From positions 558,001-622,000 of the forward strand of contig NZ_JAIEZQ010000002.1 in NCBI RefSeq assembly GCF_019679455.1: DNA of 64,000 nucleotides, written 5' to 3'. The DNA is from Nocardioides jiangsuensis. GTDB taxonomy: Bacteria > Actinomycetota > Actinomycetes > Propionibacteriales > Nocardioidaceae. This document shows, piece after piece, positions 24,131 to 24,683 of this stretch (positions are counted from its first letter, which is position 1; each line of letters begins with the position of its first letter). Both the position numbers and the translations under genes were made by a program. Under the pieces are notes generated by a model. The model worked only from the letters and a program-made list of their open reading frames with translations. It did not search any database and had not been told where the DNA came from.

Positions 24131-24201
24131 CGACACAACGGCACACGTGTGCGCGCGTTGCACGTCTCCGGCGCGAGAACGCGCCAACGGCACACGTGTG
24201 C
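24131..24201. repeat. Palindrome-pair repeat element, copy 1
   Basis: This 71-bp element contains two exact GCACACGTGTGC palindromes (24141-24152 and 24190-24201), each preceded by ACGG or CAACGG. A closely similar element lies in the same orientation at 24526-24598. The pair brackets a truncated AbiEi-like gene. It begins 47 bases upstream of the divergent split-barrel gene. Confidence 0.9.
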
Positions 24202-24279
24202 GCTTGCCGCGGGCCGGCGAGACGGTGGCCTGTGGACGGAGCCTTCGTCGGCGCACCGGCTCTTGGCAGAGTCGCGGGC

Positions 24280-24501
24280 ATGGCCGTCGCCACCTCGCCC
24301 GAACCCGAGCCCACCACCGCGCTCGACCTGCGCCGTCCCTTCACCCGGGCCGACGCGGTGCGGGCCGGGATCTCCCCGCGGGTGCTGCGAACCTCGCGGT
24401 TCCGGCGGATCTTCCGCGGTGTCTACGTCCTGCGCGAGCAACCGGGGCTCCCGCGCCGGCTCGCCGAGGACTGGCGCCCGTTCTTCCCCGGCCGCCCCTG
24501 A
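24280..24501 (+). pseudogene. Truncated AbiEi-type antitoxin-like fragment
   Basis: This 73-codon open frame begins like actinobacterial type IV toxin-antitoxin AbiEi-family proteins. A winged-helix segment FTRADAVRAGISPRVLRTSR leads into FRRIFRGVYV. The family normally continues for some 200 residues more; here the sequence departs after VYV into an unrelated arginine/proline-rich tail and stops. No partner toxin (AbiEii) is present. Together with the flanking direct repeats this suggests a deletion remnant rather than an active antitoxin. It could still encode a short DNA-binding protein, so loss of function is inferred. Confidence 0.6.
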
Positions 24502-24525
24502 CCCGGGTCCGCTCACCCACGCCGA

Positions 24526-24605
24526 CGACACAGCGGCACACGTGTGCGGTTGTGACAGGGTCCCGGAGCGCGAACGTGCCACGACGGCACACGTGTGCCG
24601 TCGTG
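24526..24605. repeat. Palindrome-pair repeat element, copy 2, with a 26-bp perfect palindrome
   Basis: This second copy of the element has GCACACGTGTGC at 24536-24547 and 24587-24598. The latter sits inside a perfect 26-bp palindrome at 24580-24605 (half-site CACGACGGCACAC). The first 23 bases differ from copy 1 at a single position; the middle is more diverged. Degenerate CCCGTGTG repeats follow to about 24655. The element is about 80 bases upstream of the EamA gene and may affect its transcription. Confidence 0.9.
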
Positions 24606-24683
24606 CCCGTGTGCCCGTGTGCGTGCGCCGTCCTGCCCGTGTGCCGTGTGCGGTGGTGGACGCGCGGCGGGGAGGATGTGCTG

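What the first reader, a model, noticed from the sequence alone, without database searches (positions are those of the whole stretch)
24131..24605. Duplicated palindromic element bracketing a truncated AbiEi-like antitoxin gene
Two direct copies of a 71-73 bp element, each with two GCACACGTGTGC palindromes about 50 bp apart, flank a 73-codon remnant of an AbiEi-type protein. The layout suggests loss of a toxin-antitoxin locus or a small element by recombination between such repeats, or palindromic repeats used as operators around a defence-type gene.
Basis: partly seen in the sequence, partly recalled or inferred. Interest (0 to 1): 0.65.

Follow-up and report, generated by a model that had tools for sequence, protein, structure and literature searches.

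The report
Nuclease gene with its own repeats
The paired palindromes are a genome-wide family of small mobile-looking repeats belonging to a broken DNA-cutting enzyme gene between them, and related actinobacteria carry intact versions of the same enzyme, each with its own different repeat, an arrangement that appears not to have been described before.

Summary
Observation confirmed. The four GCACACGTGTGC palindromes are real (chance about 5e-5 in this stretch), but local reading missed the main point. The doublet (two palindromes 51 bp apart) recurs about 17 times in this 3.97 Mb Nocardioidaceae genome, mostly just after stop codons. The 73-aa ORF is an internally deleted gene: N-terminal 53 plus last ~16-20 residues of a ~313-aa protein in relatives, an AbiEi-antitoxin fold fused to a Vsr/EDxHD homing-endonuclease domain (AlphaFold pLDDT 95; E, D, H, D invariant in 52 homologues). 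Across Nocardioides, Intrasporangiaceae and kin such genes are bracketed by doublets with nearly fixed 50-52 bp period (26/38 upstream, 22/38 downstream; controls 0-1/58), although palindrome sequence differs by lineage. Each tested genome carries dispersed copies only of its own gene's palindrome. Between two species at ~90% DNA identity, doublets are present or absent as units, while the gene stays at one orthologous site. Best reading: a REPIN/RAYT-like system with a non-homologous nuclease; Y1 transposase is absent from nine genomes. Binding, cleavage and mobilisation are inferred. In the window the nuclease is dead and its repeats are orphaned. The recombination-between-repeats and AbiEi/AbiEii readings are not supported.

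The parts
24131..24210 (.). upstream doublet: palindromes 24141-24152 and 24190-24201 (start-to-start 49 bp)
   Evidence: matches the genome-wide profile R1 at E 1e-15
24280..24501 (+). 73-aa ORF: internally deleted AbiEi-fold + Vsr/EDxHD nuclease gene; winged-helix N-terminus and last ~16-20 residues kept, catalytic E193, D226, H243, D253 (numbering of L064) lost
24526..24607 (.). downstream doublet: palindromes 24536-24547 and 24587-24598 (51 bp)
   Evidence: R1 E 7e-21

Best explanation
A gene for an AbiEi-fold DNA-binding protein fused to a Vsr/EDxHD-type endonuclease is inherited vertically at a fixed site and bracketed by doublets of palindromic hairpins with a 50-52 bp period. Copies of the same doublet are scattered over that genome, chiefly between convergent genes or just after stop codons. 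SHOWN: the protein-repeat association, fixed period, lineage-specific sequence, dispersed copies, presence/absence of whole doublets at orthologous sites, hairpin covariation in one family, and in the window an internal deletion that removes the nuclease while leaving both doublets. INFERRED: the AbiEi domain binds the palindromes, probably as a dimer spanning one doublet (an EDxHD homing enzyme is reported to dimerise on a target of nearly 60 bp); the nuclease cuts or nicks the doublet as duplex or single-strand hairpin; and repair or replication copies doublets to new places. The palindromes thus behave as non-autonomous elements served by an immobile nuclease, as REPINs do with RAYTs. In this genome the nuclease is inactivated, so the doublets should no longer move.
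For: Dispersed doublets in G000. Profile R1 hits only G000, G002, G014 and G030 of 58 genomes; three of these (G000, G002, G014) carry a homologue matching the window protein. Flank periodicity: strong upstream repeats fall at lag 51 (19), 52 (10), 50 (2); doublets up 26/38 and down 22/38 versus 0-1/58 control flanks; shared motif on both sides 21/38 versus 1-2/58. Cognate specificity: CCGTTCGATCGAACGG 56 and 31 sites in its two genomes, 0-5 chance-like elsewhere; CCACAACCGTCC-N4-GGACGGTTGTGG 14 in its genome and 0 in 11 others; 51-bp arrays of GCCACTTCTCGTGGC only in its own genome among the sites listed. Empty sites. Hairpin-arm covariation 558/770 pairs versus 478 +/- 10 shuffled. Gene at an orthologous site with different palindromes (L071, L080, L086/L087). 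Fold: AbiEi 6y8q Z 11.2, I-Bth0305I Z 11.1, Vsr Z 8.9. Y1 transposase absent from nine genomes, positive controls ring. Nearly 60-bp target of an EDxHD enzyme: PMC3943268.
Against: No binding, cleavage or transposition was shown. Empty sites lack target-site duplications and have slightly ragged edges, so loss of the doublet in the other species is not excluded. Covariation is seen in one family only; the window family varies too little, and long-range pairing of the two halves has no covariation support although it folds best. 15 of 52 close loci show no doublet by the criterion used, and the more distant Aeromicrobium/Microbacterium homologues lack the 51-bp period, though many share a motif on both sides.
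Confidence: 0.66

Rival explanations
1. Operator network: the AbiEi-fold protein is a regulator that binds paired palindromes to repress its own gene and others; dispersed doublets are its binding sites kept by selection.
For: AbiEi and Rv2827c bind pairs of 23-bp inverted repeats in their own promoters (PMC7319586); the upstream doublet ends mostly 57-123 bp before the start codon.
Against: Most dispersed copies lie after stop codons or between convergent genes (12 of 20 convergent in G058), where repression makes little sense; doublets also follow the gene; a catalytic nuclease site is invariant; orthologous sites lack the doublet in a sister species.
Confidence: 0.13
2. Bidirectional transcription terminators: GC-rich hairpins selected at gene ends, the link with the nuclease gene being incidental.
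For: Hairpin covariation and position within a few bp of both stop codons in many G058 loci.
Against: No T-tract, no terminator-like site in the window region; exact sequence and 51-bp period follow the nuclease gene and change with lineage; some copies overlap predicted coding sequence (L152, L162). Termination could still be a by-product that makes copies tolerable.
Confidence: 0.08
3. Ordinary transposon with MITE derivatives: the nuclease gene plus both doublets moves as a unit and solo doublets are deletion scars.
For: Gene bracketed by repeats, inverted in some loci (L023/L065); the window copy looks like an internal-deletion derivative.
Against: The gene sits at the same orthologous place in several genomes and no multi-copy full-length cognate was seen in six genomes; no target-site duplications seen; no transposase domain.
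Confidence: 0.1
4. One reading: an AbiEi/AbiEii toxin-antitoxin locus lost by recombination between repeats.
For: The AbiEi_4 domain is weakly detected and repeats flank it.
Against: Both repeats and both gene ends persist; no AbiEii among ten neighbours sampled in six homologous loci; the homologues are nuclease fusions.
Confidence: 0.02

Closest known systems
REPIN/RAYT (REP doublets and their Y1 tyrosine transposases; PMC3116915)
   Same: Palindromic doublets with near-fixed spacing, hairpin formation with compensatory changes, extragenic and dispersed, also flanking a vertically inherited nuclease gene; different families in one genome each with a distinct gene.
   Different: The enzyme is AbiEi fold + Vsr/EDxHD nuclease, not HUH Y1 transposase; lower copy number (about 15-40 per genome); actinobacteria; 50-52 bp period; each half is itself a palindrome.
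EDxHD homing endonuclease I-Bth0305I / Vsr endonuclease
   Same: Catalytic-domain fold and E, D, H, D residues; a long dimeric target near 60 bp is reported for I-Bth0305I (PMC3943268).
   Different: DNA-binding part is an AbiEi fold, not the phage-type modules; not in an intron; copies of the presumed target are dispersed; cleavage untested.
AbiE type IV toxin-antitoxin, antitoxin AbiEi / Rv2827c
   Same: AbiEi-like fold over residues 10-185 and multiple inverted repeats upstream of the gene.
   Different: No AbiEii toxin next door in loci sampled; fused nuclease; repeats on both sides and genome-wide.

Membership tests
REPIN/RAYT | cognate Y1 (HUH) REP-associated tyrosine transposase | tested here: not met
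   PF01797 absent from nine genomes including the window's; rings in five control genomes; gene product has another fold
REPIN/RAYT | doublets of palindromes, hairpin-forming with compensatory changes | tested here: met
   (covariation in the G058/G059 family only)
REPIN/RAYT | repeat flanks the nuclease gene and is dispersed in the same genome | tested here: met
REPIN/RAYT | nuclease mobilises the repeat | not testable with these tools
   only presence/absence at orthologous sites seen
AbiE toxin-antitoxin | AbiEi antitoxin fold | tested here: met
   6y8q Z 11.2 over residues 10-185; PADLOC AbiEi models E down to 4e-9
AbiE toxin-antitoxin | adjacent AbiEii (DUF1814) toxin | tested here: not met
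   ten neighbours in six loci are other genes; wider sample not scanned
EDxHD homing endonuclease | EDxHD catalytic domain | tested here: met
   I-Bth0305I Z 11.1; E193, D226, H243, D253 invariant in 52 proteins; residue-by-residue equivalence with I-Bth0305I not superposed
EDxHD homing endonuclease | homing: cutting an allele that lacks the gene and copying the gene into it | not testable with these tools
   gene is at a stable orthologous site; no activity data
Insertion sequence / MITE | target-site duplication on insertion | tested here: inconclusive
   none obvious at three empty sites, edges ragged

The most novel reading that the evidence does not exclude
A previously undescribed class of bacterial selfish-repeat system: AbiEi-fold EDxHD endonucleases that recognise and spread their own lineage-specific 51-bp palindrome doublets through actinobacterial genomes, a non-homologous counterpart of REPIN/RAYT, with DNA specificity that diverges in step with the protein.
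Probability: 0.6. Interest if true: 0.87.

Novelty: categorically new. Interest (0 to 1): 0.78.

Why it matters
It would show that small palindromic repeat populations tied to one immobile nuclease arose more than once with unrelated enzymes, would give a likely role to a widespread group of actinobacterial 'AbiEi/DUF559' proteins, and would supply a natural series of nuclease/target pairs in which specificity has changed repeatedly. The case of the window, repeats left behind after loss of the enzyme, lets one ask whether such repeats depend on it. A limit: the literature check covered open-access PMC papers only.

Tried and rejected
Pfam at default sensitivity found nothing in the 73-aa ORF, only a weak AbiEi_4 match at relaxed cut-off. 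A zero-gap palindrome-pair detector was too strict; replaced by autocorrelation of flanks. A strict pattern for the window doublet found nothing in relatives, whereas a profile did. GCACACGCGTGC at L014 lies inside a distant paralogue and is a chance hit. Long-range pairing between the two halves of a doublet: folds well but no covariation. Sigma-70 promoters and T-tract terminators: none. Literature: no paper in the library links DUF559, AbiEi or MTES_1575 to dispersed palindromes, nor REPIN and RAYT with actinobacteria. Homologues on plasmids and phages are few and about 30% identical or less.

Full report
1. Observation. By base composition such a 12-mer is expected 0.42 times in the whole genome; it occurs 14 times, nearly always with a partner palindrome (exact or one mismatch) 49-52 bp away.

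2. A genome-wide family. The window lies in a 3.97 Mb, 4-contig genome. Besides the two window copies, twelve further doublets were read, consensus CACAACG GCACACGTGTGC CGTTGTGACACG-N~14-CGTGYCACAACG GCACACGTGTGC CGTTGTG, with start-to-start distance 51 bp in 12 of 14 (49 and 52 in the others). A sequence profile (R1) adds a few more, including a tandem cluster of three at C2:1442922-1443260. Among 58 relatives the profile matches G002 (roughly 35-40 elements), G014 (three) and G030 (one) and no other. G002 and G014 are also the two relatives with the highest-scoring homologues of the 73-aa protein.

3. The gene. Full-length homologues are about 300-330 aa. The window ORF aligns to residues 1-53 and to the last ~16-20 residues of the G002 protein (69% identity over the aligned part; DNA alignment for the 5' part); about 240 codons, with the whole nuclease core, are gone. 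No full-length cognate remains in G000; its two other matches are about 30% identical.

4. What the protein is. The G002 protein is predicted with pLDDT 95 and pTM 0.91. Residues 10-185 match the AbiEi antitoxin (6y8q, Foldseek E 1.7e-5, Z 11.2, 168 residues, rmsd 5.5) and Rv2827c (Z 7.2); residues 188-295 match the EDxHD homing endonuclease I-Bth0305I (Z 11.1, 95 residues, rmsd 2.5), NGO0050 endonuclease (Z 10.4) and Vsr (Z 8.9). E193, D226, E237, D239, H243 and D253 are invariant in 52 homologues. Pfam gives DUF559 and sub-threshold MTES_1575 and AbiEi_4; MTES_1575 was described as a Vsr-family REase (PMC3710099).

5. A general arrangement. One scan of genome contigs gave 80 loci. In the 330 bp on either side of the genes, strong direct repeats peak at lag 51-52. 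With one fixed criterion, 26 of 38 loci have a doublet upstream, 22 downstream, 18 both, against 0-1 of 58 in control intervals of the same contigs; a shared 18-mer motif on both sides is found in 21 of 38 against 1-2 of 58. The palindromes themselves are unrelated between most lineages: CAGCACACGTGTGCTG, CCACAACCGTCC-N4-GGACGGTTGTGG, CAGCGCAATTGCG, CCGTTCGATCGAACGG, GCCACTTCTCGTGGC, TCGGCGTACGTCTTCCGA and others. Paralogues in one genome have different ones (L064/L069; L073/L088). More distant homologues (Aeromicrobium, Microbacterium and others) lack the 51-bp period but 11 of 20 share a motif on both sides.

6. Cognate specificity. Three palindromes were searched in the same twelve genomes. 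CCGTTCGATCGAACGG: 56 and 31 sites in the two genomes whose gene it flanks, 0-5 elsewhere. CCACAACCGTCC-N4-GGACGGTTGTGG: 14 in its own genome, none in eleven others. GCCACTTCTCGTGGC: arrays with 51-bp period (up to four units) in its own genome, only scattered single hits listed elsewhere (raw counts alone do not separate the genomes because the 15-mer with two mismatches is common).

7. Dynamics. In Nocardioides sp. SLBN-35 and Pimelobacter simplex 3E (proteins 88-89% identical, flanks about 90%) most doublets fetched are in orthologous places, but several are absent from the other species. At L157/L196 and L159/L197 the doublet lies between two convergent stop codons in one species and the other species lacks about 80-90 bp there; L155/L195 is similar, L152/L193 less clean. 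No target-site duplication is evident. The gene itself stays put: L071, L080, L086 and L087 share both neighbours although their palindromes differ, and L092/L105/L112/L138 share both neighbours too. Dispersed copies lie mostly 1-60 bp after stop codons; 12 of 20 in G058 are convergent. These gene calls are from a simple codon-usage finder of my own.

8. Structure of the repeat. In the G058/G059 family the arms of each palindrome covary (558 of 770 pairs against 478 +/- 10 when arms are reshuffled, 0 of 2000 as high; left and right unit z 6.3 each; z about 5 in one species alone), while pairing between the two units does not. Reshuffling ignores common descent, so this is suggestive rather than proof. 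The doublet as a single strand folds better than shuffles (z -7 to -12 in two other families, -1.8 and -3.5 in the window copies).

9. Mechanism. Shown: association, period, specificity, presence/absence, hairpin constraint in one family. Inferred: the AbiEi part binds the palindromes (AbiEi proteins bind pairs of inverted repeats in their promoters, PMC7319586), a dimer spans the doublet (an EDxHD enzyme is reported to dimerise on a nearly 60-bp target, PMC3943268), and cutting or nicking followed by repair spreads doublets. This is what REPINs with RAYTs are thought to do (PMC3116915), but Y1 transposases are absent from nine of these genomes, so it is not a RAYT system. In the window the enzyme is lost, leaving its repeats.

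10. Novelty. No paper in the open-access library links these proteins to dispersed palindromes. Subscription papers and preprints were not searched, so priority is not certain.

Noticed in passing
L005:3010-3380 (G000:C2:1442909-1443279): Three copies of the doublet in tandem with a period of about 131 bp, including the spacer between doublets: local amplification like REPIN clusters.
   Followed up: partly
L036 (G003:C67:13677-14182): A second AbiEi/nuclease homologue in a sister species that is broken over several frames, so decay of these genes is recurrent.
   Followed up: no
L134 and L132 flanks: Microbacterium homologues with repeats shared by both sides at other periods (63 bp and 84 bp).
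   Followed up: no
L152:2492-2576: In Nocardioides sp. SLBN-35 a doublet lies inside an open carboxylase-like reading frame and is absent from the P. simplex orthologue.
   Followed up: partly
G062:C130:710-877 (I. chromatireducens): Four hairpin units in a row at exactly 51 bp, so the period rather than the pair may be the basic unit.
   Followed up: no
model m34888c006db4 residues 52-185: The AbiEi-like second domain also resembles nucleotidyltransferase folds (MenT1 Z 7.4, ANT(2'')-Ia Z 7.3), a moderate match that may only reflect a common arrangement.
   Followed up: no
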